Positions 17,301 to 42,849 of a stretch of DNA of 43,185 bases are shown here, piece by piece. The position numbers were made by a program, and so were the translations under genes. Position 1 is the stretch's first letter. Each line of letters opens with the position of its first letter. Location: assembly GCA_018303655.1 (NCBI GenBank), contig JAGVXT010000030.1:1-43185 (forward strand), read 5' to 3'. The DNA is from Candidatus Woesearchaeota archaeon (lineage in GTDB: Archaea; Nanobdellota; Nanobdellia; Woesearchaeales; GW2011-AR4). The notes beneath the pieces were generated by a model. The model was not told the origin of the DNA, did not search any database, and worked only from the letters and a program-made list of their open reading frames with translations.

Positions 17301-17506
17301 CTTGAAGTTTTTCCAAACAAAATGGAGGTTATATCCATCTTATAAAAAAGGTAGGAAAATAATACAAAGCTGACAGTGTGGTCAATCCAGTCCAAGTCGG
17401 CAGGCACGCTTGCAAAGTAGCCTACAAGCCCTATAACCATCAAAGCCCCTACCAAAAACTCCGTTATGCCGAACTCAAGCTTTTTAAGAACCTCTTTTGC
17501 AATCAT
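14354..17506 (-). CDS. Large polytopic membrane protein with exported Cys-rich C-terminal region
   Basis: The protein is not recognised. In this 1050-residue protein, about a dozen hydrophobic helices fill residues 15-500, a basic cytoplasmic loop (EYHKRKWSEPIDNELVNAIRKIKKFEKR) follows, and one more helix (GMVGVFSVVILIAGYNLVNVV, about 555-575) leads to an exported region of ~480 residues. Its last ~90 residues hold two Cys-rich repeats built around NAYWLDSC and KIYWFDSC, ending CCIGNVFCQNP. Such 'Y-W-x-D-S-C' repeats occur in DPANN surface proteins. The ATG overlaps the stop of the antiporter gene (ATGA), so it is translated with it. A transport or envelope role is likely but unproven. Confidence 0.8.
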   Translation of the reverse strand: MIAKEVLKKLEFGITEFLVGALMVIGLVGYFASVPADLDWIDHTVSFVLFSYLFYKMDITSILFGKTSRFANSIIIVSYFSLFFKDMISYTSLNAFKFKIITFVNNFYVFFSDNLAAATIFSFYIGIIGILMVSLYLTKKIEISHPSFLYSFYQKNPKNNPIKFLLVFGLLLGFYYFVYNTILEWLEFTIDDPVIAIGIVFFVYKIAKHHQKFHPSNFIFKIGDFSSGWYRRFISLFHYKKTLPLAISGLLILHALSDLGVFGYSLIFLKENFYLEFLKSGHTPFLKLFLEDAKSMPSFAAIPLFIDYALNALSLIVFLLIPALVWMQMFSQKKLHFNGVFLFFVYSSAAAYMLLPGYAISPITELSTREGISLGGVDILSASLLESKSVLDKFFPNKTTVITAVSLISIIFGLAVYLLSSKPKVKRELYALSIIGGLVFYALYIFYFFSGLLDFYDEKLLEIFIPHFLIFIVLVFFLIMSILFYVGGYLMFLYEIVMEYHKRKWSEPIDNELVNAIRKIKKFEKRVMKPRKAQIIGEVFKYGMVGVFSVVILIAGYNLVNVVKERACKTEIAKFEIDLRNLDKSVRFGAKELQSYDVPCKADQIYFFDLNRNINSKDFKEIPIIKDSIESSGNNNVFIVKEGEVKRSFYAGNLEMLYPYHICFTPKFDRISFFIEGAGNSAKVASSCDQPECTFIPIEISEEDSKRIIREAVEFGCENCPTDFNQEVQKIRLTKQNVELFRKFTFCDGITNVEILIRPKKGQEIRDFSFVEFIPKTCIEDLNEYLAENVEGDVEIRSDPLIMWHFDGIGKEQKISYKLSINLDDECRDAIKGLGVAQFIEEQKEKDAEFNTAPAINGLNDITLSGIKLHRNVITNIWRFAQDKETEPKDLIYTIIDQTNSNLVDCVINEQKHMDCEVKQNIDGASKITIQVDDGEFRDAASFNVHVSQFCQSRARKTCVGNNAYWLDSCSNLEEIYETCESGEECKDGECQEQCTPNVERRCAERDKIYWFDSCGKKGSLYYDCRGENLAQNQCRGGQCCIGNVFCQNP

Positions 17507-18711
17507 TGCTGTTCCATAATTTTCGCATGTTTTTTGACTAATAGCTTAAATACAATTGGGGCTAAAAATGTGCTGAATAAAGCTACTGTGATTATTACAG
17601 TAAATATATCAACAGTTATTAATCCGCTATTAAGCGCCAGCGTGGCTATCACAATCTCTGTATCGCCCTTTGGAATAACCCCCCATCCTATTATAATGCC
17701 TTCTGTCAAAGTTCCCCTGCTTAACAAAACGCCAATAATCGTTCCGGTTAATGTGCCAAGAATATCAATTAGGATAAGGACAAAAATCAGAAGTAAGCTG
17801 GAAGGCAGAGTTGTTATGCTTGTGTTAAGCCCTACATTAACAAAGAACAAGGGTATGAGGAAGCCAAAGGATATGATGTGTATTGAGTGCGAAATCTCGT
17901 TTTTTCTCCAAGGCTTTCTGCCTTCTCCTGTAAGAAGAGTTTGCCTTACAAGAACTCCGGCTATCAATGCCCCTATCAGCGAGCCTATCCCGAAAAGCTC
18001 TGAAAGATAAGACATTAAAAGAACTATAATCAGGGATCCCATAAACAGCGTTGATTTGGAATTGTCCCTTTCAAATATTTTTAAAGCAAAAGGTATCAAT
18101 AAAATTCTTGATAGAATAATGATTCCAACAAAAACTAGTATGCCCAAAACCAGTTTTTGAAAGCTGGCCTGTCCCAGAGAAACAGAATTAAAAAGAAATA
18201 AAATAAAGCTTATAAGCAATAGTTCAAATACATCATCAACTGTTCCTGATGCTATTATAATATTAGCTATCCTGCTCTTTAAAATTTTTGCTTCTTCCAG
18301 AATATCCAAGGAAATGGCCTGCGAACTTACTGAAACAGAAATGCCGATTATTACTGAGGTTGTGTTATTAAAATGAAACAAAAATTTGCCAGCAAGAAAC
18401 CCCGCAGTCAATGGTATCAGTGTATTAAAAACCGCTATCAGGGAAGACTCCCTAAAATTTTTCCTGAATTTTTTAAGATTTATCTCCAGACCCACAAAGA
18501 AGAATAATAAGATTATGCCTATGTTTGTGATAAATGAAAAAACAGGAATTATCTGCTCTGTGAATAATAAGTTCTTTATGAGAGGAATTCCTAAAACTAC
18601 CCCTGCCAGAATCTGGCCGATTACTCTTGGCAGCCCAAAATGCCTAAAAATCTCTGAAATCAGATATGCAAGAAGCAGCGCAATAAAAATTACTAGTAAT
18701 GCATTTGTCAT
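17503..18711 (-). CDS. CPA2-family monovalent cation/proton antiporter
   Basis: 402 residues with about 12 membrane helices. FGLPRVIGQILAGVVLG (25-41) and FFVGLEINLKKFRK (71-84) are hallmarks of the Na+/H+ exchanger and KefB branch. Asp159-Asp160 in GTVDDVFELLL lie at the ion-binding centre of CPA2 carriers. GWGVIPKGDTEIVIATLALN near 345-364 matches the conserved P-x-G loop, with Lys in place of the commoner Arg. There is no C-terminal TrkA-N/RCK regulatory domain. Na+ or K+ extrusion in exchange for protons is the expected role. It is in an apparent operon with the downstream 1050-residue membrane protein (4-base overlap) and probably the upstream 188-residue membrane protein. Confidence 0.93.
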   Translation of the reverse strand: MTNALLVIFIALLLAYLISEIFRHFGLPRVIGQILAGVVLGIPLIKNLLFTEQIIPVFSFITNIGIILLFFFVGLEINLKKFRKNFRESSLIAVFNTLIPLTAGFLAGKFLFHFNNTTSVIIGISVSVSSQAISLDILEEAKILKSRIANIIIASGTVDDVFELLLISFILFLFNSVSLGQASFQKLVLGILVFVGIIILSRILLIPFALKIFERDNSKSTLFMGSLIIVLLMSYLSELFGIGSLIGALIAGVLVRQTLLTGEGRKPWRKNEISHSIHIISFGFLIPLFFVNVGLNTSITTLPSSLLLIFVLILIDILGTLTGTIIGVLLSRGTLTEGIIIGWGVIPKGDTEIVIATLALNSGLITVDIFTVIITVALFSTFLAPIVFKLLVKKHAKIMEQQ

Positions 18712-22696: not shown

Positions 22697-24109
22697 ATGG
22701 CAACTGATGCAGAGCTTAAGAAACATGGATTTGAGGAAAATGAGATAAGCGAGGAATTTAGAAGCTCTATCATTAAAACAGGATACCCTGCTCCTGCAAG
22801 GAGGTACAGGCTTCATTATGAAGGTTACAACATTTCCATTGAGGAGCCTTATTTCTGGACTTTGCATTACTTAAGATATTTCGGCGGCTTTCCGAGGATT
22901 GACAAAATCACCGATATATTCGCAGCTGCTGAAAATTCCGCTTTCTTTGGAGCGTCACAGCAAAGGCTTGGATTGCAGCAGGACAAGGTAAGCCAGTTTC
23001 TTGCCACAATAGGAAAGATGGTAAGGGAATTGTTCCAGCTTGTCAGGGAAATGAGGATTCTTGACGAAAGATTGAGTTATTATGCTGATTCTTACACAAA
23101 CAGCCCAAGCGCTGAAAGCGCTGAAATAACATTAAAAGGAATATGGGTTGATTTGGTGGAGCAAGGCGCAAAGAATCCAGCTTCTGTTTACGGCATGGCT
23201 AGAGAAGTGCAGTTCACAACATTGCCGGATCTGTTTTTTGCCACGCATCCAAAAAAGCAGGAGGATGTTGATATTGTTGTCGAAAGGGAAAGAGGCCAGT
23301 TCAACAGGAAGGTAAGGGAAGTTTTGAAAAGAAAATTGAGAAGCTTTTTGGCATGGAAAGAGCACACATATGAAGAGCTGAAGAACAGGAGAAAGTTTAC
23401 TTTAAAGTATTTGCGGCAGCACTTTGAGATAATAAGAATGTACATGACATGGGTTAAGCCTTACTTAAAAAACATACAAAGGCTGCAGCTTGACCAGTCA
23501 AGGATTGATACTCCTGACTTAATAGTTGCTTTTGAAAGCTCAATGATTGAGGTGGAGATTTTGGCGATAAAGCCAGCCGGAATGGTTAACCAGTGCATTC
23601 TAATGCATTACCTTTTCAGAACAAGGCCTGAAATGAGCTATTCGCAGGAATACCAAAGAGGGCCTTTGCATCTTGGCAGGGTAGAAATGGACTTTAGGGC
23701 ATATGCATGGACAGACAAGGAAATTGAAAATTACAAAAAAATGAGGGAGCAGGAGGATTTGCAGCTGCTCGGGGTTATTGACGGCTCTGTGAAAGCTGCT
23801 CTGGAGGCATTAGGCGATGAGCTGATGCGATATTTAAAAGAAGCAGGAGAGGAATTTGAAGAGAGAAAGGAAATTCCCAAAGCCCCCCCTAAACGCTCAG
23901 GCCCTTTTATGTCTGTTTTTGCGGGATTCGCGGAATTGTTCACATCCTTCAAAATGAACAAATCGCTTAAGCAGGCAAGGAAAAAGCCAACACAGACAGA
24001 CCAATTAAAAATGGCAATCACAAAGCAAAAAGCGGAGGATACTGTGAAAAAGGTAATGTGGAACACTTATCATCATTTCAAGAAGCAGCATGATATGCTG
24101 AACTGGTGA
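22697..24109 (+). CDS. Uncharacterised 470-residue helical protein
   Basis: The protein is not recognised. It is mostly helical and charged, with no signal peptide and no clear membrane helix. Visible landmarks are RRYRLHYEGYNISIEEPYFW near residue 37, an Arg/Lys/Glu-rich centre (KVREVLKRKLRSFLAWKEHTYEEL about 199-222), KYLRQHFEIIRMYMTWVKPYLKNIQRL (helical) and a C-terminal region with Pro-Pro-Lys-Arg and FAGFAELFTSFKMNKS. It follows the AbrB-like pair by 72 nt on the same strand. TTCCT/AGGAA at about 22662-22679 forms a small inverted repeat in that gap. A large cytoplasmic structural or nucleic-acid-associated protein is possible, but nothing specific can be claimed. Confidence 0.75.
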   Translation: MATDAELKKHGFEENEISEEFRSSIIKTGYPAPARRYRLHYEGYNISIEEPYFWTLHYLRYFGGFPRIDKITDIFAAAENSAFFGASQQRLGLQQDKVSQFLATIGKMVRELFQLVREMRILDERLSYYADSYTNSPSAESAEITLKGIWVDLVEQGAKNPASVYGMAREVQFTTLPDLFFATHPKKQEDVDIVVERERGQFNRKVREVLKRKLRSFLAWKEHTYEELKNRRKFTLKYLRQHFEIIRMYMTWVKPYLKNIQRLQLDQSRIDTPDLIVAFESSMIEVEILAIKPAGMVNQCILMHYLFRTRPEMSYSQEYQRGPLHLGRVEMDFRAYAWTDKEIENYKKMREQEDLQLLGVIDGSVKAALEALGDELMRYLKEAGEEFEERKEIPKAPPKRSGPFMSVFAGFAELFTSFKMNKSLKQARKKPTQTDQLKMAITKQKAEDTVKKVMWNTYHHFKKQHDMLNW

Positions 24110-26527: not shown

Positions 26528-26677
26528 ATGAGAGTAGTCGCCTATAAGGGACAATACAGGGTAACAATTCCCAAGGATTTGGCTGAGGCAAAAGGCTGGA
26601 AGCCAGGAACAAAACTGAGGTTTGTTGAGGATACAGAGGGAAATATCATCCTGAAAGAGCTTGAAGAAAAAAAATGA
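26528..26677 (+). CDS. AbrB-type regulator coupled to surface protein gene
   Basis: The 49 residues MRVVAYKGQYRVTIPKDLAE, GWKPGTKLRF and EGNIILKEL form a single swapped-hairpin AbrB/MazE domain, with G-Q-Y-R-V-T-I-P and P-G-T-K-L as family marks. Its stop overlaps the start of the 1176-residue surface protein by four bases (ATGA), so the two are translated together. Its promoter holds three palindromes, which suggests that the protein represses or tunes its own operon. It differs from the AbrB-like protein at 22314 but shares TACTATT-like sites. Confidence 0.82.
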   Translation: MRVVAYKGQYRVTIPKDLAEAKGWKPGTKLRFVEDTEGNIILKELEEKK

Positions 26678-29600
26678 AAAAAACCGTAAAAAAACGAGTT
26701 AGCAGTCTTGGAATTATATCTATTAATTTGCTATTCTTAATACTTTTATTGACAATAGTGTTGGCTGTGGATACAACACTGCCCATAACCAATTCGATAA
26801 ACTCTTCCCCAAATCCATTAAGTGCAAGCGATTTATTAACCATAACCGCTAATGTTACTGATGATGTTTTGATCCAAAGCGTCTCTGTAGAGATAAACGG
26901 AACAAATTATTTGATGCAGCGTGTTGCTGCCGACAACACATCGTTATCAGACGACTTTGAATCAAGAAACTTATCAAACTGGACAACAAGTGGCGCAGGC
27001 GCTGTTTGGACAAATAGATCTGTTAATCCCTTTAGTGGTACTGTACATATAAGAGCAGAGCCTCAAAATCTTGGAGGAAGCTTTATCGAGAGAAACATAA
27101 CAACTTTAGGCTACACAAACATAGATTTCAGCTTTTATGCTGCAACTAGCGGCTTGGATGCAGGCGATACTTTCCAAGTAGATTGGAATTATGGAAGCGG
27201 TTGGGTTAATCTGCTGACAACACATGCAAGCGGCTCAGATGAATTTTCAGGAGCAGCATCATACAAATTTTTTGGATTTAGCTTTAATGATAGCGCAGAT
27301 GACAAAAACAACATCTCGATTAGGTTTGTCTGCATTGCTGGCGGCATTAATGAAGTGTGCGATGTGGACAATGCTAGCGTAACAAAAGTTCCTTTTGGAG
27401 ATTTATGGAGTTTTGTTTATAATACTACTGGGCTAAGCGCAGGCTTGCATAATTATACTATATATGCTAATGACTCCAGCAATAACGCTGCATTGCCAAT
27501 AAAAGGTAATTTCACAATAAGCGGTGCTGATGTAACACCGCCAACAATAATAGGCTCATTAAACAAATCAATTAACAGCATTTTACAAAATGACACAATA
27601 AATGCCACATTCAATGCAACAGATGAAACTGGACTTAATATAGGGCAGATATTAATAAACGACACAGGAGCATTAAGAATATTCAATTTTACTCTTTCTG
27701 GAGCTTCTTCCCAATTTTCCCAGAACTTTACAGTAAGTTGCAGTGCAGGCTGTGCTGTTAATGTAACTGGAAGGGTAAATGACACTGGTGGAAATTTCAG
27801 GCAGAATGAAATAATATTTGCAGTTTCTTCGGCAGACACGACCAAACCAACGGTTATTTTAGGCAAGCCAGACAATAATTACTACAATGACACTGATTTG
27901 TATGCTAATATAACCTTTAATGGCACTGCTGCTGATAACATAGAATTAAAGAATGCCACCCTATATCATAATGCTAGCGGGATCTGGAAAGGTAACTTAT
28001 CGTCTATTGTAAGTGGAATTTCAGCCGGATTTAAATTTAGTTTAAACCTGACAAACGCAACATTTACATGGAATGTAGAGACTTGCGACACAGCTGGAAA
28101 TTGTGATTTTTCAACAACTAATAGAACTGTTATTTTGAATTTTACAGGCATTGCAAATGCTTCAAATATCACAAGTGCAAATACTTTTTCTGTATTGAAT
28201 TTTACTCCTGCAAATAACAGCGTTAATGTCTCATTAAAGCAGGATATAACTGCAACTTTCAACCAAGATGCTAATGTTTCCACAATAGACAATTCAACAG
28301 TTATTGTTAAAGACAGCAGCAATAATGCAGTAAGGGGCAAAATAAAATATTTCTCAGCTGAAAGAAGGGTAAGATTTAACCCTCACAGGTTTTTAAAAGA
28401 GAATGAAACATATGCTGTAAATTTAACTAAAGATATTAAATCTGATAATGGGACTAGTTTGAATTCAGATTTTACCTGGAGCTTTACAACAGAAATAAAA
28501 GATACAGACAAAGACGGAATTCTTGATATTGACGACACTGATGACGACAATGACGGCATTGACGATAGTGGCGATTTCTTAAAAGGAATTAATGCGTCCC
28601 ATATAAAAACTGATATAGTCGGATTGACGGTAAAAGTTAATGATTCTACAAATATTAGTAAAAATTTTGATAAAAAAGAATTAGTTCAGTTTCTTGTTAA
28701 TAACAGCGTAATTGTGGAGTTCAATTTTTCATTTGGACAAAGCAAGGCGCTAGATTTAACTAATATATCTATACAACAAAACGACAATTCATCTAAAGGC
28801 TCCATTATAATAAACAGTTTAATTGCCAATGCTACACTAAAAACATTCTATTTGGATAATTTGTCAAGTTATGATGGGGTATGCATAAAAGATGCGGATG
28901 TTGATGCAATTTCTGATATAAGCAATAATTGCAAAGGCTTATTTGAAACATTTGTAAAATGTCCGGGCAATGCAAGAAATTATAACTGCACGATCAATAG
29001 CACCCGGATTAAGTTAACAGGCTTAAATCATTCCGCTGCACAGCAGGCAAACGACAATGCCCCCCCCAATATTGATTTAATGAGTGTTTCATATAGCGGA
29101 ACAAGCACTGTAAGTGCGATTCTAACTGTGATAACCGATGAAGATGCAATCTGCAAGTATGACTCACAAGACATATCATTTGGCAGCATGAGTTCTTCAA
29201 TGAGCGGCAGCGGAACACAACATACAGGATCAATATCTTATGATGCAGACACCGCAGGAACATATTATACCTTATGCAAAGATGAGTTTGGAAATATAAT
29301 GCCCTCTTCTAACTCAATTTCATTCAATGCAAATGTGGCAGAAATCAGCACAAATTCCGGTGGAGGGGCATCTGATGGAGGAGCATCTGCAGGTGCTGAT
29401 AACAACATCTTAAACTTTAGCTCGTGCAATGAAAACTGGATTTGCGATGGCTGGAGCGAATGCGCAAATGATTTCCAGACAAGAAAGTGCTTTGATTTAA
29501 ACAATTGCGGCATGCAAAATAGAAAACCAAAGGAATTCCAGTCTTGCAAGAAAGAATGTGAGGAAATTTGGCAGTGCGATAAGTGGTCAGTGTGCACTGA

Positions 29601-30204
29601 AAGTGTAAGAAAAAGAGGATGCTATGATGTAAACTCATGCTCAACAGAGGATTTTAAACCTAGCGAGTATGAAGAGTGCGAATTTATTGCAGAGTGCTAT
29701 AATTTAATTCAAGATCAAGGGGAAGAGGGAATAGACTGCGGAGGTCCTTGCCCAGTATGCGAAACCTGTTTTGACAGGATGCAAAACCAGGGAGAAGAGG
29801 GAATAGACTGCGGAAATCCCTGCAGACCTTGCAGGACAGGCGATATCCTAACTGGGAAGAGTATTGCGATCTTTACAGAGCCTTTGCCAAAAATAAATTT
29901 GTTATTTATTTTTGTTATAGTAAGTGCTTTAATATTCATTGCATTTAAAAAAATTCCTGCAATTCAGGAAGTATTCAAAATCAAAGAAGATTCCTCCTTC
30001 GATAACAAGCATAAGATAATATCCAAACTAAAAGATAATTTTGGATTGGACAAAATAGAAGCCACAATGCCAAAAACTTATAATACTGGGGCAACAAAAC
30101 TAAAAAAACAATGGTTTACAGCAAATCATTATCCCGCAAATAAAGCTGCTGATAAAGAACAAATTTTGAATAAATTCCAAGAGGCATATCAACATGGCAG
30201 GTAA
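26674..30204 (+). CDS. Large anchored surface protein (adhesin-like)
   Basis: 1176 residues. Features in order: signal peptide (about 1-32); module 1 (about 35-285), homologous to the C-terminal half of the divergent BPL_N protein; Ig-like repeats; an SbsA-type Ig domain (FTPANNSVNVSLKQDITATF ... TWSFTT, about 509-609); a calcium-binding acidic loop DTDKDGILDIDDTDDDNDG; beta-rich domain; two C-x5-W Cys-rich modules (ENWICDGWSEC, EEIWQCDKWSVC); two copies of QGEEGIDCGGPC-like repeats; one membrane helix (LLFIFVIVSALIFIAF, about 1074); and a ~90-residue basic cytoplasmic tail. Asn-x-Ser/Thr sites are abundant. It overlaps the upstream AbrB gene by 4 bases and the downstream MinD-like gene by 11 bases. 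A cell-surface contact role is inferred. Confidence 0.85.
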   Translation: MKKTVKKRVSSLGIISINLLFLILLLTIVLAVDTTLPITNSINSSPNPLSASDLLTITANVTDDVLIQSVSVEINGTNYLMQRVAADNTSLSDDFESRNLSNWTTSGAGAVWTNRSVNPFSGTVHIRAEPQNLGGSFIERNITTLGYTNIDFSFYAATSGLDAGDTFQVDWNYGSGWVNLLTTHASGSDEFSGAASYKFFGFSFNDSADDKNNISIRFVCIAGGINEVCDVDNASVTKVPFGDLWSFVYNTTGLSAGLHNYTIYANDSSNNAALPIKGNFTISGADVTPPTIIGSLNKSINSILQNDTINATFNATDETGLNIGQILINDTGALRIFNFTLSGASSQFSQNFTVSCSAGCAVNVTGRVNDTGGNFRQNEIIFAVSSADTTKPTVILGKPDNNYYNDTDLYANITFNGTAADNIELKNATLYHNASGIWKGNLSSIVSGISAGFKFSLNLTNATFTWNVETCDTAGNCDFSTTNRTVILNFTGIANASNITSANTFSVLNFTPANNSVNVSLKQDITATFNQDANVSTIDNSTVIVKDSSNNAVRGKIKYFSAERRVRFNPHRFLKENETYAVNLTKDIKSDNGTSLNSDFTWSFTTEIKDTDKDGILDIDDTDDDNDGIDDSGDFLKGINASHIKTDIVGLTVKVNDSTNISKNFDKKELVQFLVNNSVIVEFNFSFGQSKALDLTNISIQQNDNSSKGSIIINSLIANATLKTFYLDNLSSYDGVCIKDADVDAISDISNNCKGLFETFVKCPGNARNYNCTINSTRIKLTGLNHSAAQQANDNAPPNIDLMSVSYSGTSTVSAILTVITDEDAICKYDSQDISFGSMSSSMSGSGTQHTGSISYDADTAGTYYTLCKDEFGNIMPSSNSISFNANVAEISTNSGGGASDGGASAGADNNILNFSSCNENWICDGWSECANDFQTRKCFDLNNCGMQNRKPKEFQSCKKECEEIWQCDKWSVCTESVRKRGCYDVNSCSTEDFKPSEYEECEFIAECYNLIQDQGEEGIDCGGPCPVCETCFDRMQNQGEEGIDCGNPCRPCRTGDILTGKSIAIFTEPLPKINLLFIFVIVSALIFIAFKKIPAIQEVFKIKEDSSFDNKHKIISKLKDNFGLDKIEATMPKTYNTGATKLKKQWFTANHYPANKAADKEQILNKFQEAYQHGR

Positions 30205-30949
30205 AATTATAGGTATAATAAGCTTAAAAGGAGGTGTCGGCAAAACAAGCACTGTAGCTAATTTAGGAGCTGTTTTAGCGACAAATTTTAATAAAAAGAT
30301 TTTAGTAATTGATGCAAATTTTTCAGCACCAAATTTAGGCCTGCATGTTGGCTTAGTCGATCCTAAAACCACAATACATGATGTTATGCTGAATAAAGCC
30401 AGCATAAATGAAGCCATTTACAAACATGACTCAGGCTTCCATTTGATACCAGGCGCTTATATCTCAAGAAAATTAAATCCAAGTAAACTGAAGCAGAAAA
30501 TTAGTTTTTTGAAAGACTACTATGATGTTATTTTAATTGATTCTTCACCAACTTTAAATGAGGAGCTCCTTGCTACAATGATGGCTTCAGATGAGCTGTT
30601 TGTTGTGACTTCACCTGATTATCCAACTTTAAGTACGACGTTAAGAGCAGTGAAGCTTGCAAAGCAAAAAAAAGTCCCAATAACCGGCTTAATTTTAAAC
30701 AGGGTAAGGGGCAAAAAATTTGAGTTAGGCATAAAAGACATAGAAGATGCTTCTCAAGTGCCTGTATTGGGTGTTTTGCCAGAAGACATAAAAGTTCCAG
30801 AGTCTATCTACTGCACAACCCCTGTCAGTTTATACAAGCCGACATCTAGCTCTGCTATTGGGTTCAAGAAATTAGCCGCTCGCATAATAGGAGAAAAATA
30901 TGAAGAGCATGCACTATGGAATAAACTAAAAGCTTTTTTCAAAAGATAA
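30194..30949 (+). CDS. MinD/ParA-family ATPase
   Basis: The 251-residue P-loop ATPase has the deviant Walker A motif LKGGVGKTS (11-19, signature Lys12 and Lys17), Walker A' region VIDANFSAPNLGLHVG (43-58) and VILIDSSPTLNEE (Walker B). The C-terminus, WNKLKAFFKR, has the shape of the amphipathic membrane-binding helix of MinD. Such ATPases dimerise with ATP and position partners on the membrane. The gene begins inside the last codons of the surface protein, so the partner is likely to be the cytoplasmic tail of that protein, an inference from coupling. No MinE or FtsZ gene is near. Confidence 0.9.
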   Translation: MAGKIIGIISLKGGVGKTSTVANLGAVLATNFNKKILVIDANFSAPNLGLHVGLVDPKTTIHDVMLNKASINEAIYKHDSGFHLIPGAYISRKLNPSKLKQKISFLKDYYDVILIDSSPTLNEELLATMMASDELFVVTSPDYPTLSTTLRAVKLAKQKKVPITGLILNRVRGKKFELGIKDIEDASQVPVLGVLPEDIKVPESIYCTTPVSLYKPTSSSAIGFKKLAARIIGEKYEEHALWNKLKAFFKR

Positions 30950-31039: not shown

Positions 31040-33181
31040 ATGAAATTTTCAAGCGGCTATTACTCCCATCACCCAATGGTGGATTACTTTAACGCAATGG
31101 ACCCCCAGACTTATGGGGAAAAGCCTTCTTACGGTCTTGATTTGGGAGTCAAGGACATTGGAATGAGCGTGCCAATGGGAATTTCTGCTGCAAATGTTGC
31201 TGGAATTTATTCCAAGATAAGAATGGGGGCAGGCAACATAGAAATACAGTTTCCAGGCTACAGGACGGGCTCTAGGAATGCGCAAACCCCTGAAATGTTT
31301 GGCGAAGACCAGCGACAAGCAATAAGGGAATTGTCAATGGCCAACGAAGTCAAGTTCACAACACATGCCTCTTTCCAGCTTATGGGAATGATGGGAAGGG
31401 ATGAAAGGGGAAATTTCTCAATTTACAATGCAACACAGGACATGTTTGAGCTGAAAAGGGCAATTGACTTCCAGGCTGATATGGGCGGAGGCTCTGTTGT
31501 GATTCATTCAGGAGAATTTGAAAGGCCAATGACAGACATGTATTTAGATGACGAAAGCGGAAGGATTAATCTTGCAAGAGACCCAAGCGGCAGACTGATG
31601 TTCAAGCAGGCCCATACACAAGAGATTGATGCAAGGTTTGAGCTGCTTGACGACAGAACATCCGCAAAGATAGAGACAGTGCAGAAAAACAGATTGGTTG
31701 CGCATCCTGTCTGGAACAAGGCTGAGAAAGATTATTGGGGAGAAGATCAAAAAGGAGATAGTGTTTACATAAAAAAAGATGATTATATCAACTATCAAAA
31801 AAAACTAATCAATAACCCTTATGACCCTCTAAAAGGGCGCGTTCCAAAGTTCAATGAACAAACAAGATTGTTTGAATCAAGATTAAAGACTTTTGAAGAT
31901 TTTAAAAGAGAAGCGGACGAATATAATATATTCTTTGAGAAATTGCATGGAAGGAAGCCAAATTACTATGAAAAAAGATATCCTGAAGAGGCCTATGTGC
32001 AGGCAACTCTTGATGCGCAGGAAGGCATAGCAAGAGGATGGCAGCTTCAGTTCTCTGCGGCTGCAGAATCCAATATACATGCATTGCAAAAGCTTCAGGA
32101 AGCAAAAAAATTCTATGAACAGCTTCAAGCGTCAGTTCCGCCAGAAGAGCAATGGAAATTAATGAGACAAGACGATGAACTTTACAGAATTACAGGAGGC
32201 TTTGTTGCGCCTGAAATGAAAACACCTCTTGACTTAATTAAAAAGATAGAGTTTGATATTGAAAGGAGACTTGAATATGACAGGACTAGCGCTTCAGGCC
32301 AAGGTCAGCAGGCTGAAGATACGTATGAGACAAAACAGCACATAATCACACCAATCAAAAGGCTTGAGAAGCAAGGTGTAAGGCTTTATGCAGAAGCCGG
32401 AATACACGCTTTAAGAAAAACAAGAGATCCAAACAATCCAGTCACGGTTGCAGTTGAGCACATATTCCCTGAAAGGTTTGGAGGGCACCTGGAAGAATTG
32501 AAGTGGATAATCAAGAAATCAAGGGAAAGAATGGTTGACTTGCTGACGCAGCCTGAGATAGAGTATGGTGTAAGCATGTCTCCAAAAGAGGTTAAAGAAG
32601 GCGAGAAGCAGCCTAACCCATACTATATGGGCGTAAGCAGGAATGAAGCTGAAAAACTGGCTGAAAGGCACATAAAAGCAACGCTTGATACAGGCCACAT
32701 TAACTTATGGCGCAAGTACTGGCAGGAAGACCCGCGAAAGACAAGGGAAGAAAATGATAATGCATTCAATAAATGGGTATTCAACCAAGTTGAAAGCCTT
32801 GCAAAGGAAAAAATGGTTGGAAATGTCCACTTGGCTGACAATTATGGCTATCACGATGACCACCTTGCACCAGGACAAGGAAATTCTCCGATAAAGGAGA
32901 TAATGTCAATACTTAAAAGATATGGATATGAAAAAGCAATAACAGTTGAGCCAGGGGCTGATGCATCAACTGACTTAAGCGACTTTCATGGGCTGATGAA
33001 AACATGGAAATTTTTTGGCTCCCCAGTTTATGGAATGGGATTCAGGGGAGCAGGAGTTCCTCAGACATGGGCTGATGTTCAGTATTCTTTCTTTGGCCAG
33101 AACAAGCCGCCTTACTACATTTTTGGAGGCTATGCTCCTTCAAATGACTGGACTTTGTGGAGCGCAGTGCCGTTAGAGTGA
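31040..33181 (+). CDS. Endonuclease IV-like / xylose isomerase-like TIM-barrel protein with large insertion
   Basis: 713 residues from ATG 31040, which has AGGTG at a proper distance; a GTG at 31031 is part of that motif. The nine metal ligands of the endonuclease IV trinuclear zinc site are all recognisable in order: His109 (TTHASF), His156 (VIHSGE), Glu473 (VAVEHIF), Asp550 and His553 (DTGH), His597 (NVHLAD), Asp606 and His608 (DDH), Glu637 (VEPG). The family is normally ~280 residues. Here a mostly helical, charged insertion of about 300 residues lies between the second and third ligand. A metal-dependent phosphodiesterase/AP endonuclease or sugar isomerase activity is plausible. It stands alone with a TATA-like box around 30997. 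Confidence 0.82.
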   Translation: MKFSSGYYSHHPMVDYFNAMDPQTYGEKPSYGLDLGVKDIGMSVPMGISAANVAGIYSKIRMGAGNIEIQFPGYRTGSRNAQTPEMFGEDQRQAIRELSMANEVKFTTHASFQLMGMMGRDERGNFSIYNATQDMFELKRAIDFQADMGGGSVVIHSGEFERPMTDMYLDDESGRINLARDPSGRLMFKQAHTQEIDARFELLDDRTSAKIETVQKNRLVAHPVWNKAEKDYWGEDQKGDSVYIKKDDYINYQKKLINNPYDPLKGRVPKFNEQTRLFESRLKTFEDFKREADEYNIFFEKLHGRKPNYYEKRYPEEAYVQATLDAQEGIARGWQLQFSAAAESNIHALQKLQEAKKFYEQLQASVPPEEQWKLMRQDDELYRITGGFVAPEMKTPLDLIKKIEFDIERRLEYDRTSASGQGQQAEDTYETKQHIITPIKRLEKQGVRLYAEAGIHALRKTRDPNNPVTVAVEHIFPERFGGHLEELKWIIKKSRERMVDLLTQPEIEYGVSMSPKEVKEGEKQPNPYYMGVSRNEAEKLAERHIKATLDTGHINLWRKYWQEDPRKTREENDNAFNKWVFNQVESLAKEKMVGNVHLADNYGYHDDHLAPGQGNSPIKEIMSILKRYGYEKAITVEPGADASTDLSDFHGLMKTWKFFGSPVYGMGFRGAGVPQTWADVQYSFFGQNKPPYYIFGGYAPSNDWTLWSAVPLE

Positions 33182-34000: not shown

Positions 34001-34507
34001 ATGACCATTGACAAAAAAGAATTAACAAAGCTCTCTCCTGAAGAAAGAATAAAAAAGCTGAAGCTGATGGAGGAAGAGAGAAAAAAGGAAGTCAACGAGA
34101 TAGAGGAATTAATCAAAAAATCAGTGCATGAATTGAAAACTGATAAGATTGCTGACGAAATTGCCCCTGAGCAAAGGGCAGTTGACATCTCAAGGCTTTT
34201 TGAAACCAAGGGAGAGGACAGGCTTGAACGGACTGCAAGGCAAGAAGCGCCTTCAAACTTAATGAGAGGAAACAGGGGATACCAAGCTATGGTGCAGACA
34301 TACCAAGCATATTCCCAGCTAACAAAATTTTACGGCAAAATATCCATGGGGGAAAATTTAACAGCAGAGGAAAGGGATACAATCAATCGTATTGATGAGC
34401 AGATTGGCGTAGCAGAAAGGTACATGACAGAAGGAGAGAAGGCAGCAAGCAAGCTTGATGCAAGCAGGGCAGTCTTGTACAAGCTAAAAAAAGAAACCGG
34501 GCTTTAG
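34001..34507 (+). CDS. Coiled-coil protein of unknown function
   Basis: The protein is not recognised. The 168 residues begin with a long charged coiled coil (KLSPEERIKKLKLMEEERKK, then EIEELIKKSVHELK), followed by a helical part with YQAMVQTYQAYSQLTKFYGK and ERYMTEGEKAASKL. It is cytoplasmic. Its stop codon overlaps that of the convergent gene at 34504 by four bases. The two convergent genes may belong to one cellular process, but nothing in the sequence shows this. Confidence 0.75.
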   Translation: MTIDKKELTKLSPEERIKKLKLMEEERKKEVNEIEELIKKSVHELKTDKIADEIAPEQRAVDISRLFETKGEDRLERTARQEAPSNLMRGNRGYQAMVQTYQAYSQLTKFYGKISMGENLTAEERDTINRIDEQIGVAERYMTEGEKAASKLDASRAVLYKLKKETGL

Positions 34508-36693: not shown

Positions 36694-37500
36694 ATGAAGT
36701 TTGATATTCCTAAGAAAGAGCATCCCAACCTTGAGCGCTATTACAAGGAGGACATTGACACTGCCTACAGGTTTGCCAATGAAATCTACAAGGAACTGGG
36801 AAGCCTGATAAGGGCTGTTGTCATATTCGGCTCAACAGCAAGAAGGACAAAAGATGCAGGAGGAGACATCGACATTCTTGTCATCATAGACGATTTGATG
36901 ATGAGCATGTCTCCTGAGGTTGTTGAGGCATACAGGCTTATTGTCCAAAAGTCAATTGTAAGGATTTCTACAAAGCTTCACATCACAACAATGAGGTTCA
37001 CCTCATTCTGGGAATACATGAGAAACGGCGACCCTATAGCCATCAATCTTTTAAGGGATGGAGTTGCATTGATTGACTCGGGATTTTTTGACCCGATGCA
37101 GGCGCTGCTGAAAAGGGGAAAGATAAGGCCAACGCAGGAAAGCATATGGACTTATTATGCAAGGGCCCCAAACACGCTGCACAATTCAAAATGGCATTTA
37201 TTGCAGGGTGTGATTGACTTATACTGGGCGGTGATTGATGCTGCGCATGCTGCCCTGATGAAAATAGGGGAAATACCCCCAACACCTGAGCATGTTGCTG
37301 ATCTGATGGAGCAGAAACTGGTAAAGAAAAAAATGCTCGAGCATAAGTATGTAACAATAATGAGGAATTTCTACAGGCTGATGAAGATGGTGACACATCG
37401 CGAGATTGTTGAGATAAAAGGAGAGGAATTTGACAGGTACTATAAAATTGCCGAGGATTTTGTCCACAGGATGAGAAGGATTATAGAGCACGGGAAATAA
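36694..37500 (+). CDS. Pol-beta-type nucleotidyltransferase domain protein
   Basis: 268 residues from ATG 36694, which has AGAGGTGG 3-10 nt upstream; the frame also stays open to 36670 but without a ribosome site. VVIFGSTARRTKDAGGDIDILVIID (42-66) is the NTP_transf_2 motif: Gly46-Ser47 and the metal-binding Asp58-x-Asp60. The rest is helical, with YWAVIDAAHAALMKIGEIPPTPEHVAD resembling the substrate-binding helical domain (HEPN-like) found fused to such transferases. It may add nucleotides to a protein or RNA. The fused form with a HEPN-like tail recalls MntA/HepT systems, though here both are in one chain. Confidence 0.82.
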   Translation: MKFDIPKKEHPNLERYYKEDIDTAYRFANEIYKELGSLIRAVVIFGSTARRTKDAGGDIDILVIIDDLMMSMSPEVVEAYRLIVQKSIVRISTKLHITTMRFTSFWEYMRNGDPIAINLLRDGVALIDSGFFDPMQALLKRGKIRPTQESIWTYYARAPNTLHNSKWHLLQGVIDLYWAVIDAAHAALMKIGEIPPTPEHVADLMEQKLVKKKMLEHKYVTIMRNFYRLMKMVTHREIVEIKGEEFDRYYKIAEDFVHRMRRIIEHGK

Positions 37501-37504: not shown

Positions 37505-39112
37505 CTAATCAGTGGCTTTAATCAGCAGGGCTGCTGCCACAACAACCAAAAATAAAAGGAACAAAGCGAAGAGTGTCATGAAGAGAAAATAGCTCATGCT
37601 GATTCCTTTGAAAACTATCCATACGGGCAGCAGGTTTTGCTTTTTGCTTTCTTTTAAAAACAATGAAACTAACCCGCTTTCCAGCTTTCCGCATTCTTCA
37701 ACTTCAAGTCTGGCAGTCTGCCTGTCTTTTATGATGCTGTCTTCAGAGTAAATGTTTGATGTCAGGCTGTAAGCGCCTTCCTGCAGGCTGCTGCCTAAAT
37801 TAAACGTTATGGACTTTGCAAGCACATTGTTTTCGCTTCCTGCCTTTATGGAAACAGCACTTGCAAGAATACTTGAGCCTGAATTGTCATTCACGATTTC
37901 AAGAAGGATGTTGTCCTCGTTTTCTTTTCCTGTATTTGCAATCCTGATGCCTGCAGTTACATCCCTTTCGCAGCCAACTGCTTTTGGGAACAGCTCAAAG
38001 CTTATGAACCTTAAGTCATGCGTGTCCTTCTCAACTTCCAGCTCTATGTCTGCATCATCATTTTGGTCATTGCCGTTCTCGTCCTCTCCCTCAGCCTCGA
38101 TTGCAATTGCATAAGTGCCTTCGTCAACGCTAAGCGGAACCTTAAACCTGAAAGTCATGGTTTTGCCATCCTGCGCATTCAGCTCAAATTCAGATGATTC
38201 AGCCCCAATATCATTTCCGCTTGCTATGCCTTCGATTACAACCCTAGCTCTTATATCTTCTATCGCTACGCCTTCGCTTAAAGTAAATTCATTTTTTACC
38301 TTGACCTTTAATTCAATATCCGAGCCTGGTTTGGCTTCTCTGTCTATCTTTTCATTGTCATTAATATTGCTGCTTTTTTTCCCATCAATTTCTGCATCAA
38401 TATCAATTATCCTTAGCTTGTTGCCGGAAGCGCTTGTTCCTCCAGCAGTGCCTATCTCTCCTGAACCGCTTCCTCCACTGCCTCCAGTCCCACCTGTTCC
38501 GCCAGTACCGTCTGTTCCACTGCCACCTGAAGCAATACATGTATCACCGCTTATTGTTTGAGTAATTGGGCACCCGCAAATGCTTGCCCTTTGTATTAAG
38601 GTTCCATTCTGGCAGAATAATGGCAGTGTTGAGGAGCATATTCCATAAGGAGTGTTGTCATTGCACCTTTGTACAGGAGCTATACAACTGTCGCCATTTA
38701 TAACAAGATTGCCAGGGCAGCCGCAGAAAGATGCCATGTTAATCAAAACACCATTTTGGCAAAAAAGAGGCACATTACTTGAGCATTGCCCTTCTGCTGT
38801 GCCATCGCTGCATCTTTGGAATTGAGGCGCTGCTGTCTGGCATACTATAAGGCAGCCAGGGCTTCCATAATTATCTTCCCCTTCAAATGCCTGGCAGCCA
38901 TTTGCTCCGGAAGGGACACATTGATGATTTTCACCATCTCCGGAATCGCGGCAGCTTAATCTTGCGTCATTGCCATTGCAGTACACAACCCCGCCGCTAA
39001 AGGTTGGAAAAGAAGTTATGGTGTAAATTTGCGCTAATGCTGCGCTTGCAAGCAACACACCCATTATAAAATTCGCAATGAAAAATTTAAATTTAAAAAT
39101 TGCATTTGCCAT
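37505..39112 (-). CDS. S-layer-like surface protein with Cys-rich repeats
   Basis: 535 residues from ATG 39112, one base after the stop of the upstream surface gene. It has a signal peptide (about 1-29, ending ASAALA). Two Cys-rich repeats follow (each with SSNVPLFCQNG- or SSTLPLFCQNG-, then GCP and GDSC/GDTC), then a Gly/Thr/Ser linker (GTGGTGGTGGSGGSG) and the shared S-layer-like domain (about 230-485: KLRIIDIDAEIDGKKSSNIN ... EKDTHDLRFISFELFP ... TARLEVEECG). One membrane helix (about 507-533) ends in a short tail. The ectodomain faces outside. It lies in a tandem array with two paralogues at 39114 and 41773. Confidence 0.83.
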   Translation of the reverse strand: MANAIFKFKFFIANFIMGVLLASAALAQIYTITSFPTFSGGVVYCNGNDARLSCRDSGDGENHQCVPSGANGCQAFEGEDNYGSPGCLIVCQTAAPQFQRCSDGTAEGQCSSNVPLFCQNGVLINMASFCGCPGNLVINGDSCIAPVQRCNDNTPYGICSSTLPLFCQNGTLIQRASICGCPITQTISGDTCIASGGSGTDGTGGTGGTGGSGGSGSGEIGTAGGTSASGNKLRIIDIDAEIDGKKSSNINDNEKIDREAKPGSDIELKVKVKNEFTLSEGVAIEDIRARVVIEGIASGNDIGAESSEFELNAQDGKTMTFRFKVPLSVDEGTYAIAIEAEGEDENGNDQNDDADIELEVEKDTHDLRFISFELFPKAVGCERDVTAGIRIANTGKENEDNILLEIVNDNSGSSILASAVSIKAGSENNVLAKSITFNLGSSLQEGAYSLTSNIYSEDSIIKDRQTARLEVEECGKLESGLVSLFLKESKKQNLLPVWIVFKGISMSYFLFMTLFALFLLFLVVVAAALLIKATD

Positions 39113-39113
39113 T

Positions 39114-41732
39114 TTATAGCCTCGCATATAAAATAAGGGACGTGAAGACAAAAAATGCTGCAAATATAAAAGTGCTAAACGCCAGCAACTGCATGTTCCT
39201 GTCAGATCCTTTGAACAGAATTTCTGTTATCTGCCCAATAGGTTTTTTAGCTGATTCAAGATTGCTTTTTCCTGATGGGCCTAGTGACGACAGCTCAACT
39301 TTGCCTTCTGCTGCTCCTGTCTTGATGCAGTCCCCAATAACTATCTCTTTTGTTTTTGTGTCCAGGATTTTTTCATCATCGCCATAGGCATTTGCAATTA
39401 CAGGATAAGCGCCGCTTTCAGCATCGCTGCCGATTTTCAGCTTTAACGATTTTGAAAATATGTTGTCCTCAGTTCCCGAAAGAAGGAATATATCTTTTTC
39501 AACTATATCAAGCCCCAGATTATCATTCTTTATTTTCACATAAGCATGCTCCTCGTCTTCCTGGCCGGTGTTTATCAATCTGTAGTTTAATGAAATTTCC
39601 CTGCTGCAGGCTGCTGTTGAAGGGTTTATGTCAAAATTCAAAAATCTTAAGTCATGCGTGTCCTTCTCAACCTCAAGCTCAACATTTATCTCGTGCTCGT
39701 GGCCTGTGCCGTTCTCATCCTCCCCCTCGGCTTTTATCACAATGTCAAAAGTGTCCTCATCGACATTCAGCGGGACATCAAACTTTAAAGTGACTGTCTT
39801 GTCATTCTGCGCGCTTAGGTCAAACTCTTTTGATTCACCTTCAAGATCATCGCCATTGTCTATCTCTTCAATTGTCACGTCAACTGTTATATCCTCTATT
39901 TTAAGGCCCTCGCTTTTTGTGAAATTATTGAATACCTTGATTTTGAGCTCCACTTTTGAGCCTGGCTCTGCCTCCCTGCTTATCTTTTCATTGTCCTCAA
40001 CATTATTGCTTTTTTTATTATCCACTTCTACATCCAGGTCAATTATTTTTAGTCTGCTTCCGCTGGATGATGCGCCAGCTCCTGCCCCTCCGCCTGCACC
40101 GCCTCCGGCAGATGCATTTGCAACAGTTAGGTTGTAAATCTGGCTTGTTGTTGCTATTAAGTCCGTAACGCTCAAATTAACCTCAAAGAAACCGCTAGCT
40201 GATGGTGTAAATGAAACAAGCCCTGTAGAGCTGTTTATTGAAATTCCGCTGATATTTGATTTAACCGAGAAAAACAATGTATCAGCTTCCAAGTCCACAG
40301 CATCAGCATCATAAGCGTATAGCTGATTTTGCGTTGCGGTTGTTACAGGAGATGAGGTTATGAATGGGGCTGCATTATTTGAGAAATTTACGCTTATCAT
40401 TATTATTTCAAAATCTGCTGAAATCCCATCTGTTACTGAAAAGGCTATTGTGTTGTTGCCTATGTCTGTGTTTTTTGGCTTCCATGTTACTGCTGCAATG
40501 CTGTCGTTTATTTTTGAGACTGATATGCCGGAATGGTTTGATGAGTAGTTTAGCACATCATTGTCAGGGTCGCTTGCTGTGATGTTAAATGACAATGTTA
40601 TGTTTTTAGTGCCTGACATGTTGCTTATGCCGCTTAACACAGGAGCAATGTTAAAGTTGGTTACCCGCACATTCCACAATATGGATAATTGGTTTGAGGA
40701 AGAGTCCTTGACTGTTGCATTTATCTTATGTGTTCCATTGTCATTGAAGCTTGGCGTGTAGGAAAAAGATGTGATGCTTGTGCTGTTAAGCGCATTATCT
40801 ATAAACCATGAGAAATTAAGCGCTGCATCGTCAGGGTCAGAGGCATTTGCATTAAAGTTCAATGTGGAGTTCTCCATCAAAGTCAGGTTAAGGCTTGATG
40901 GTGAAAATGAAACGATAAAAGGGCTGTTGTTTACACTTACATTAAATAATTTGTCAGAACTTGACAACCCATAGCTGTCATTAAAGAATAAAGTTATGTT
41001 GTACTGCTTTTGGGAATTTAAGCTTGTGTTCCAGGGGAAAAACCAAATGTCGCCATTTTTTATCATTGAAAAATTTGTGCCGTTGAAATTAACTATTGTT
41101 AAATTTACTTGTGAAGTGTCGTCTGTTATGTTGACGGTTATGTTTGTTAGAGCACTTATTTTTGTATTATTGCCTGACGGCTTTAGCCATTTGTTAAGAT
41201 TTGGAGACTGTTTGTCATTTTTTCCTCCGGGTGTCAAAACAGAGAGATTGAATATTGCAGAGTTTCCATCTGGATATCTGCCAACAGAAATATTCTCAAA
41301 TGCCTTGCCAGATGCCTGCGCATAGGCAACAGAATCAACCAATGAGCCTGATGAGTTATATAACCTGACTTCTCCGCTTGTATCTGCCAAATTAAAGTTG
41401 GATAAAGTAATATTGATAATATTTATCCCATTCAGCTTTACATTAGGATATGTTTGATTGAATATGCTTGAGTCACCGGCAAGTATAATGAACCCATTTA
41501 CAGGAATAGTTGCATTTAATGTAAAATTGCTGCTTGAAGTTTCTGAAATATTCCAGTTTGCAAGGCTCACAGGAAAACTGTTGTTGTTGAACAGCTCAAC
41601 CCATTCAGAATCAGGGTCATTAAGCCCGTTTGCAAGAATTTCATTTATCAAGACTGCGGAATAAGCATTTGATGATAAAGCTAGCATAAATATCACCAAT
41701 AAGCCAATGACTAATATTTTTTTAAAAACCAT
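39114..41732 (-). CDS. S-layer-like surface protein with lamin-tail and cadherin-like domains
   Basis: 872 residues from ATG 41732. Signal peptide (about 1-26). A lamin-tail domain (about 27-145: AVLINEILANGLNDPDSEWV, VSLANWNI, GFIILAGDS) is followed by Ig/cadherin-like repeats (for example LNLTLMENSTLNFNANASDP and TATQNQLYAYDADAVD), a Gly/Ala hinge and the S-layer-like domain (about 575-800, SRLKIIDLDVEVDNKKSNNV ... EKDTHDLRFLNFDINPS). One membrane helix and ILYARL end the chain. N-x-S/T sites are frequent. Lamin-tail domains occur in many secreted prokaryotic proteins. The stop is followed one base later by the next paralogue's ATG, so the array is probably one operon. Confidence 0.85.
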   Translation of the reverse strand: MVFKKILVIGLLVIFMLALSSNAYSAVLINEILANGLNDPDSEWVELFNNNSFPVSLANWNISETSSSNFTLNATIPVNGFIILAGDSSIFNQTYPNVKLNGINIINITLSNFNLADTSGEVRLYNSSGSLVDSVAYAQASGKAFENISVGRYPDGNSAIFNLSVLTPGGKNDKQSPNLNKWLKPSGNNTKISALTNITVNITDDTSQVNLTIVNFNGTNFSMIKNGDIWFFPWNTSLNSQKQYNITLFFNDSYGLSSSDKLFNVSVNNSPFIVSFSPSSLNLTLMENSTLNFNANASDPDDAALNFSWFIDNALNSTSITSFSYTPSFNDNGTHKINATVKDSSSNQLSILWNVRVTNFNIAPVLSGISNMSGTKNITLSFNITASDPDNDVLNYSSNHSGISVSKINDSIAAVTWKPKNTDIGNNTIAFSVTDGISADFEIIMISVNFSNNAAPFITSSPVTTATQNQLYAYDADAVDLEADTLFFSVKSNISGISINSSTGLVSFTPSASGFFEVNLSVTDLIATTSQIYNLTVANASAGGGAGGGAGAGASSSGSRLKIIDLDVEVDNKKSNNVEDNEKISREAEPGSKVELKIKVFNNFTKSEGLKIEDITVDVTIEEIDNGDDLEGESKEFDLSAQNDKTVTLKFDVPLNVDEDTFDIVIKAEGEDENGTGHEHEINVELEVEKDTHDLRFLNFDINPSTAACSREISLNYRLINTGQEDEEHAYVKIKNDNLGLDIVEKDIFLLSGTEDNIFSKSLKLKIGSDAESGAYPVIANAYGDDEKILDTKTKEIVIGDCIKTGAAEGKVELSSLGPSGKSNLESAKKPIGQITEILFKGSDRNMQLLAFSTFIFAAFFVFTSLILYARL

Positions 41733-41772
41733 GCCCCCACTACACAATGGTAATATAGTTGGTATATAAATC

Positions 41773-42849
41773 TTATCGTGCTTTGCCTGCCCTCAAATAG
41801 CCGAAAACTATAACCACGGCAAGCACTGTAACAACAAAAGCTCCCAAGACAACAGGCACAAACACCGGTTCATTCAAAAGCGATATTTCTTCTGTTGCTG
41901 TGACTTGCTCTCCTTGGTTTGCCTGCGTCTCATCTGTTGACTGGATTACCTCAACTGCTTCTTCACTCTTTGCCTCTTCTGGTTTGGATATTGTGCCGGA
42001 AGCGCAGTCTCTAACAACCAAATCCGCAGTTTTTTGGTCGAATAATACAAAGTTTTTCCAGTAAAGGTTTATGAAAATAGGGTAAGTTCCCGCTCTTAAA
42101 AATGAAGGTGCTTCAATGTTCAATGTTTTTGCATACATCTTTTCTTCTTCGCTTGCTTCGTCTGAAGATTCCAGGGATATGTCCTTGTCAAATGAATTTA
42201 TGCCAAGATTGCCTGACTTGAATTCAAGCGCAACCTCGTTTTCAAAATTCGAGCCTGCATTTGTCGCCTCAGCCACCAGCCTTGTTTTTCTGTCGCAATC
42301 TACTGTATTTGGGTTAAGCAAAACTCTTGTAATCCTTATGTCATGGCTCTGCTTCTTTACCTCAAGCTTTAAATTTAGCTCAGTGCTGTATGGTGTCTCG
42401 TTTCTGTCCTCGCCTTCGACTTCTATGATTGTGTTGTATAAGCCTGCATCAACATCAAGCGGTATTGGAAATTTAATGTCAACCCTTTCATCATTTCCAG
42501 GCTCTAAATCAAAATCTATGCTGTCCTCTTCCAAGTCAGCGCCGTCATCAATTTCTTCTATGGTAACCCTTGCAAATATTCCTCTTAAGTCAGGGTCCTC
42601 TCCTTGAAAAGTGTTTTCCACCCTTAAAGTAAGGGTTAAATTTGAGCCAGGCAAAACATCAACCCCTATTCTTGTGCCGTTTGCCACAGGGACTGAATTA
42701 GAATCTATCCTGTCCCTGTTTTCCACACGATAAGTGTATGCCTCATCATAGTCGACATTTGCATCTATTTCAGTTATCTGCAGCCCTGCTGCCATTATGG
42801 CTGGAGCTAGCAAAACCATGAATAAAAAGATAAAAGCTAATAGTCTCAT
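41773..42849 (-). CDS. S-layer-like surface protein, shortest member of the array
   Basis: 358 residues. Signal peptide MRLLAFIFLFMVLLAPAIMA. The chain is mostly the shared domain (about 22-285), with LQITEIDANVDYDEAYTYRV, ARVTIEEIDDGADLEEDSID and KKQSHDIRITRVLLNPNTVD as counterparts of the same blocks in the two downstream paralogues, then a Cys (VVRDCASG), an acidic Glu/Gln linker, a membrane helix (PVVLGAFVVTVLAVVIVFGY) and the basic tail LRAGKAR. It is the first gene of the array, 40 nt before the next start. A TATA box (CATTTATATATAG on the minus strand, 42878-42890) and AGGTAC before the ATG fit an operon start here. Confidence 0.87.
   Translation of the reverse strand: MRLLAFIFLFMVLLAPAIMAAGLQITEIDANVDYDEAYTYRVENRDRIDSNSVPVANGTRIGVDVLPGSNLTLTLRVENTFQGEDPDLRGIFARVTIEEIDDGADLEEDSIDFDLEPGNDERVDIKFPIPLDVDAGLYNTIIEVEGEDRNETPYSTELNLKLEVKKQSHDIRITRVLLNPNTVDCDRKTRLVAEATNAGSNFENEVALEFKSGNLGINSFDKDISLESSDEASEEEKMYAKTLNIEAPSFLRAGTYPIFINLYWKNFVLFDQKTADLVVRDCASGTISKPEEAKSEEAVEVIQSTDETQANQGEQVTATEEISLLNEPVFVPVVLGAFVVTVLAVVIVFGYLRAGKAR

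What the first reader, a model, noticed from the sequence alone, without database searches (positions are those of the whole stretch)
31040..33181. Endonuclease IV-like metal site in a 713-residue protein with a ~300-residue insertion
All nine ligands of the Nfo trinuclear zinc site can be placed in the right order (H109, H156, E473, D550, H553, H597, D606, H608, E637). The protein is about 2.5 times the length of Nfo, and a helical insert splits the barrel after the second ligand. This could be a repair enzyme with a built-in partner domain or a new phosphodiesterase.
Basis: partly seen in the sequence, partly recalled or inferred. Interest (0 to 1): 0.6.

Follow-up and report, generated by a model that had tools for sequence, protein, structure and literature searches.

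The report
Conserved zinc-site TIM-barrel enzyme in Nanoarchaea
This gene encodes a large predicted metal-dependent enzyme that shares its metal-binding residues with a DNA-repair nuclease but is not one, and it sits in an uncharacterised gene cluster that almost every sampled relative of these tiny-celled archaea keeps, so it probably does an important unknown job there.

Summary
Window 31040-33181 encodes a 713-residue protein with a split xylose-isomerase/AP-endonuclease-2 TIM barrel (PF01261). In 68 homologues, down to 16-20% identity, H109, H156, E473, D550, H597 and E637 never vary and H553 varies only at one ambiguous residue; D606 is kept in 62 and H608 in 65. A 188-340-residue insert between barrel strands 4 and 5 is always present.

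It is not endonuclease IV. Its nearest solved relative is MJ1311, not Nfo. It lacks Nfo's DNA-contacting HxxY..NL motif (0 of 59, against 24 of 24 Nfo-like proteins in relatives). The genome already has an Nfo-like protein and a PolX polymerase.

The main finding is context. The protein is near-universal in its archaeal class. It is encoded with a helical protein (A), a coiled-coil-like protein (B) and a nucleotidyltransferase (C), in the order A-TIM-C within 8 kb in 40 of the genomes tabulated. A and C probably correspond to two DPANN 'dark matter' families already listed; I found no description of the cluster or its metalloenzyme in the papers searched.

Best guess: a metal-dependent phosphoester hydrolase acting in a complex with A, B and C. 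Chemistry and substrate are inferred.

The parts
31040..33181 (+). TIM: 713-aa split-barrel metalloenzyme (the finding)
31148..31528 (+). First half of the barrel (residues 37-163) with ligands H109 and H156
   Evidence: hhalign to the Nfo N-terminal half, 92%; strands 66-70, 105-109, 151-157 in the model
31529..32431 (+). Insert between strands 4 and 5 (residues 164-464, including the helix that leads back into the barrel); part beta, part long helices; poorly conserved
   Evidence: length 188-340 aa in 59 homologues; no column at least 90% conserved
32432..32959 (+). Second half of the barrel (residues 465-640) with ligands E473, D550, H553, H597, D606, H608, E637
32960..33178 (+). C-terminal tail (641-713) ending ...DWTLWSxVPLE in nearer homologues
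   Evidence: low model confidence
22697..24109 (+). Protein A: 470-aa mostly helical protein of unknown fold, conserved partner gene
   Evidence: matches in 31 related loci and 201 of 234 genomes of the class; no Pfam or PDB relative
34001..34507 (+). Protein B: 168-aa Lys/Glu-rich, coiled-coil-like partner protein
   Evidence: BLAST matches in 18 related loci; alignment A4
36694..37500 (+). Protein C: about 268-aa nucleotidyltransferase-domain protein (GS and DxD motifs invariant), conserved partner gene; the Met at 36694 matches the homologues' start
   Evidence: PF01909 E 1.3e-5; alignment A2; 231 of 234 genomes

Best explanation
The protein is a metalloenzyme of the xylose-isomerase/AP-endonuclease-2 superfamily, closest to the archaeal MJ1311 type. 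It has an Nfo-like two- or three-metal site at the mouth of a split TIM barrel. It most likely hydrolyses a phosphoester bond with a metal-activated water, on a nucleotide, nucleic acid or nucleotide-linked substrate. It most likely acts in a complex with helical protein A, coiled-coil-like protein B and nucleotidyltransferase C, which may add the nucleotidyl group that the barrel removes or processes. The insert and the conserved C-terminal tail probably bind partners or close over the active site. Shown: homology, ligand conservation, the insert, near-universality and gene linkage. Inferred: metal identity, hydrolase chemistry, substrate and physical complex.
For: Nine ligand positions kept in 68 proteins down to 16-20% identity, seven of them with no true exception. 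The profile alignment to Nfo recovers seven of nine ligands unprompted. The two His that bind Zn1 in Nfo (H109 and H156 here) are invariant, while the isomerase-like paralogue in the same genome (L024) shows no His at the same strands (sequence). Other superfamily members hydrolyse phosphodiester-containing substrates: endonuclease IV and CbiR (PMC7733943). Linkage: among genomes with both genes located, A lies just upstream of TIM on the same strand in 65 of 73 same-contig cases, TIM lies upstream of C within 6 kb in 61 of 68, and all three are collinear within 8 kb in 40. The linkage persists in very divergent genomes. TIM was found in 208 of 234 genomes of the class and 117 of 119 of the phylum sample; seven of twelve genomes rechecked for a missing or weak match hold a divergent 500-690-residue reading frame, six of them next to a copy of A.
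Against: The closest solved relatives after MJ1311 are sugar epimerases. The third metal site (D606/H608) is altered in 7 of 68 members, so a full trinuclear site is not universal. No substrate or product pathway emerges from neighbours beyond A, B and C. The structure model is of moderate confidence and metal geometry was not measured.
Confidence: 0.5

Rival explanations
1. It is a sugar or sugar-phosphate isomerase or epimerase that happens to keep extra metal ligands.
For: PDB profile hits after MJ1311 are D-tagatose 3-epimerases; NCBIfam weak hits are fructoselysine 3-epimerase and hydroxypyruvate isomerase; Foldseek's best barrel matches are UlaE, IolI and ketose 3-epimerases. The four ligands used by epimerases (E473, D550, H597, E637) never vary.
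Against: The two Zn1-type His are also invariant in all 68, which the epimerase mechanism does not require; no sugar-metabolism gene recurs beside it; class-wide conservation with a nucleotidyltransferase is odd for sugar catabolism.
Confidence: 0.17
2. It is an endonuclease IV-like AP endonuclease or other DNA-repair nuclease with a built-in partner domain.
For: Nine-residue site aligned with Nfo; partner C belongs to the polymerase-beta-type nucleotidyltransferases.
Against: No deoxyribonuclease IV model match; Nfo HxxY..NL motif 0 of 59 against 24 of 24, and three recalled PROSITE family patterns 0 of 59; separate Nfo-like protein and PolX in the same genome; Nfo absent from the PDB profile hits.
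Confidence: 0.12
3. It is the nuclease or phosphatase arm of an RNA-processing or toxin-antitoxin-derived regulatory complex turned housekeeping, with C as a nucleotidyltransferase that modifies RNA or a partner protein.
For: A DPANN family described as MNT fused to HEPN, 'typically in house-keeping context' (PMC6393860), probably corresponds to C; some neighbours are RNA or translation genes (NFACT-R, YhbY, TYW3).
Against: Pfam found no HEPN domain in C; neighbour recurrence is low (8 or fewer of 41 loci); correspondence of C to that family is inferred, not tested.
Confidence: 0.13
4. A metal-stabilised scaffold with no catalysis.
For: Large helical insert and coiled-coil-like partners.
Against: A scaffold would not need all active-site ligands kept at 16-20% overall identity.
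Confidence: 0.06

Closest known systems
MJ1311 of Methanocaldococcus jannaschii (PDB 3wqo, D-tagatose 3-epimerase-like protein)
   Same: Best PDB relative (E 1e-11). Eight of the nine ligand positions can be read as conserved in the alignments shown. From memory, its structure paper (Uechi et al. 2014, not in the library) notes that all nine endonuclease IV zinc residues are conserved and that there is no DNA-binding groove.
   Different: 293 residues, no insert, no extra C-terminal tail; alignment outside the ligand motifs is weak.
Endonuclease IV (Nfo)
   Same: Same fold and the same nine metal-ligand positions.
   Different: No HxxY..NL motif, no Nfo model match, split barrel, 713 against about 283 residues.
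CbiR and other AP endonuclease 2 superfamily enzymes (PMC7733943)
   Same: Same Pfam superfamily; precedent for a phosphodiester-bond hydrolase outside DNA repair.
   Different: Different organisms and gene context; no insert known to me.
DPANN dark-matter families cls.004259 (NEQ050, MNT fused to HEPN) and cls.004340 (NEQ484, alpha-helical), PMC6393860 Table 1
   Same: Probably the same families as partners C and A: matching description, breadth and housekeeping context.
   Different: That table does not report their linkage to each other or to a metalloenzyme; orthology was not tested here.

Membership tests
Xylose isomerase-like / AP endonuclease 2 superfamily (PF01261) | Score above the Pfam curated cut-off | tested here: met
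   54.2 bits against 31.1; 37 of 37 homologues match at E up to 0.001
Xylose isomerase-like / AP endonuclease 2 superfamily (PF01261) | Eight-stranded barrel with metal ligands at strand ends | tested here: inconclusive
   Seven strands modelled, ligands at strand ends or following loops; strand 1 and parts of the site have low confidence, no coordinates given
Endonuclease IV (Nfo) | Nine metal-ligand residues | tested here: met
   D606/H608 altered in 7 of 68 homologues
Endonuclease IV (Nfo) | Match to the NCBIfam nfo (TIGR00587) model | tested here: not met
   No hit up to E 10; the paralogue L023 scores 53 bits, below the 129.65 cut-off
Endonuclease IV (Nfo) | HxxY..NL segment (Tyr72 region that contacts DNA in E. 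coli Nfo, from memory) | tested here: not met
   0 of 59 against 24 of 24 Nfo-like proteins in relatives
Endonuclease IV (Nfo) | AP-site cleavage | not testable with these tools
   needs an assay
MJ1311-type proteins | Closest profile match and shared ligand motifs | tested here: met
   E473 equivalent not shown in the printed alignments
MJ1311-type proteins | Short uninterrupted barrel, dimer with residues of one subunit over the other's site | tested here: not met
   insert of 188-340 aa in 59 homologues; oligomeric state not testable
Ketose 3-epimerases | Glu-Asp-His-Glu single-metal site, no second metal His pair | tested here: not met
   The four ligands are present, but the two extra His are invariant

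The most novel reading that the evidence does not exclude
A-B-TIM-C is an undescribed core molecular machine of the class, a nucleotidyltransferase-metallohydrolase complex for a nucleic-acid or nucleotide-linked processing step that almost every sampled member retains even in 0.6-Mb genomes, and whose catalytic subunit is a new branch of the AP-endonuclease-2 superfamily.
Probability: 0.4. Interest if true: 0.82.

Novelty: new variant of a known kind. Interest (0 to 1): 0.62.

Why it matters
Few genes of unknown function are kept almost throughout a whole class of archaea with reduced genomes. This one keeps a complete metal active site at under 20% identity and travels with two other near-universal unknown proteins, so it probably performs a core process. 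It turns separately listed 'dark matter' families into one testable complex with a predicted catalytic centre.

Tried and rejected
Endonuclease IV membership: rejected on motif, model and profile evidence. A viral or mobile origin: the one IMG/VR scan found no relative. Fold of protein A: the model (mean pLDDT 67.5) gave no meaningful PDB match. The model of TIM gives only weak Foldseek hits (best E 0.016), though barrel matches have probability up to 1.0; a deeper alignment could not be submitted because the structure tool does not list loci from the genome search as allowed. Functional hint from wider neighbours: none recurs strongly. E159 and H483, which looked like extra ligands in the first alignments, are not conserved in distant members. 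The MJ1311 structure paper was not found in the library. The whole genome was not available as a file.

Full report
OBSERVATION. The window carries an ORF at 31040-33181(+) encoding 713 residues. Homologues begin at the same Met and end at the same residue. Pfam finds AP_endonuc_2 (PF01261) at E 2e-14. Twenty-one close homologous loci came from Woesearchaeota and other DPANN metagenome-assembled genomes. Wider sampling gave alignments of 49, 59 and 68 proteins. In the 68, whose most divergent members are 16-20% identical to the window protein, H109, H156, E473, D550, H597 and E637 never vary, H553 varies only at one ambiguous residue, D606 is kept in 62 (His in five, Gly in one) and H608 in 65. 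In the 59-sequence alignment only 12 of 124 His/Asp/Glu reach 90% conservation, and all nine predicted ligands are among them.

STRUCTURE. hhalign of the family profile against an Nfo-family profile anchored on a true Nfo (L087, above the NCBIfam cut-off) gives two complementary hits: residues 37 onward to the Nfo N-terminal half and the later residues to its C-terminal half. Seven ligands fall on the identical Nfo residue; E473 and H597 are off by one and two columns. AlphaFold2 (mean pLDDT 67) puts strands at 66-70, 105-109, 151-157, 468-474, 545-550, 593-597 and 634-636. H109, H156, E473, D550, H597 and E637 lie at or next to the C-terminal ends of successive strands, H553 just after strand 6, and D606/H608 in the loop after strand 7. 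These are the strand assignments known for Nfo (established knowledge of the family). Coordinates were not returned, so the meeting of the nine residues at one point is inferred. The insert between strands 4 and 5 is 188-340 residues long in 59 homologues, is the least conserved region together with the N-terminus, and is predicted as a beta portion followed by long helices.

WHAT IT IS NOT. No NCBIfam deoxyribonuclease IV model matches. A profile search of the PDB finds MJ1311 first (E 1e-11), then D-tagatose 3-epimerases, and no Nfo. The HxxY..NL segment typical of Nfo is absent from 59 of 59 members and present in 24 of 24 Nfo-like proteins from related genomes. The window's genome has its own Nfo-like protein (L023) and a PolX at window 7614-9326. 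The isomerase-like paralogue L024 shows no His at the two Zn1 positions (sequence), so the extra ligands are not a general feature of the superfamily.

CONTEXT. Comparison of flanks showed a 470-aa helical protein (A, window 22697-24109) in 31 related loci, a 168-aa Lys/Glu-rich protein (B, 34001-34507) in 18 and a nucleotidyltransferase-domain protein (C, 36694-37500) in 12. Class-wide searches found C in 231 of 234 genomes, TIM in 208 and A in 201; among genomes at least 90% complete the counts are 132, 125 and 126 of 133. In the phylum sample TIM is found in 117 of 119. Of twelve genomes rechecked for a missing or weak match, seven contain a very divergent TIM reading frame of about 500-690 residues, in six shown to lie beside A. 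From the coordinates listed in these searches, A precedes TIM on the same strand within 3.5 kb in 65 of 73 same-contig genomes, TIM precedes C within 6 kb in 61 of 68, and all three are collinear within 8 kb in 40. In distant genomes the order is A, then a protein of about 170-220 residues in the position of B, then TIM, then C. In the window the set is spread over 15 kb because other genes, including an Ig-like protein and a MinD-like ATPase, lie between A and TIM.

MECHANISM (inferred). The two His that hold the first zinc of Nfo, the bridging Glu and the second-zinc ligands are invariant, which suggests at least two metals; the third metal site is altered in 7 of 68. Endonuclease IV and CbiR show that this superfamily hydrolyses phosphodiester-containing substrates, and CbiR does so outside DNA repair (PMC7733943). 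The constant companion C has an intact GS...DxD nucleotidyltransferase motif. I therefore favour a phosphoester hydrolase working with a nucleotidyltransferase in one complex. An epimerase-type reaction is the main rival.

KNOWN AND NEW. A review of archaeal dark matter lists two DPANN families, 'MNT fused to HEPN... typically in house-keeping context' (NEQ050) and an 'alpha helical protein' (NEQ484) (PMC6393860), which probably correspond to C and A; this was not tested. A DPANN protein-family study reports 51 families shared by Woesearchaeota and Pacearchaeota, mostly of unknown function (PMC8204110); its supplementary list could not be read. I found no description of the metalloenzyme or of the linkage in the papers searched, but most subscription papers are not in the library.

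VERDICT. Observation confirmed; repair interpretation not supported; new phosphodiesterase plausible. The protein is a new variant of a known superfamily, made interesting by its near-universal conservation and its partners.

Noticed in passing
window 37505-42849 (-): Three large neighbouring ORFs (552, 877 and 358 aa) are mutually related by shared BLAST matches; the 877-aa one carries a lamin-tail domain and Ig-like domains, so they look like tandem surface proteins.
   Followed up: partly
window 26674-30949 (+): An 1176-aa protein with a bacterial Ig-like domain overlaps by a few bases a MinD-like ATPase (251 aa); the pair lies between partner A and the TIM gene in this genome.
   Followed up: partly
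window 7614-9326 (+): A PolX-type DNA polymerase (pol beta thumb, HHH, PHP domains), so a base-excision-repair polymerase is present independently of the module.
   Followed up: no
window 14354-18711 (-): A 1050-aa protein with no Pfam match lies next to a Na+/H+ exchanger; related exchanger proteins also lie just upstream of protein A in several relatives (L005, L017, L018); the L005 one carries a TrkA_N domain.
   Followed up: no
L023 (own genome, contig C29) and L088-L116: Related genomes carry a divergent archaeal Nfo-like family with the HxxY..NL motif that falls below the curated nfo cut-off; only one of 39 relatives has a match over the cut-off.
   Followed up: partly
window 36694-37500 (protein C): At the place where I would expect the third catalytic carboxylate of a nucleotidyltransferase, protein C has an invariant His (H104 in alignment A2), so its activity may be unusual or lost (inference).
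   Followed up: no
window 32960-33178 (C-terminal tail): The last residues are among the most conserved of the protein in nearer homologues (DWTLWSxVPLE), whereas distant members often end in FSGTPM-like tails; a functional C-terminus is likely.
   Followed up: partly
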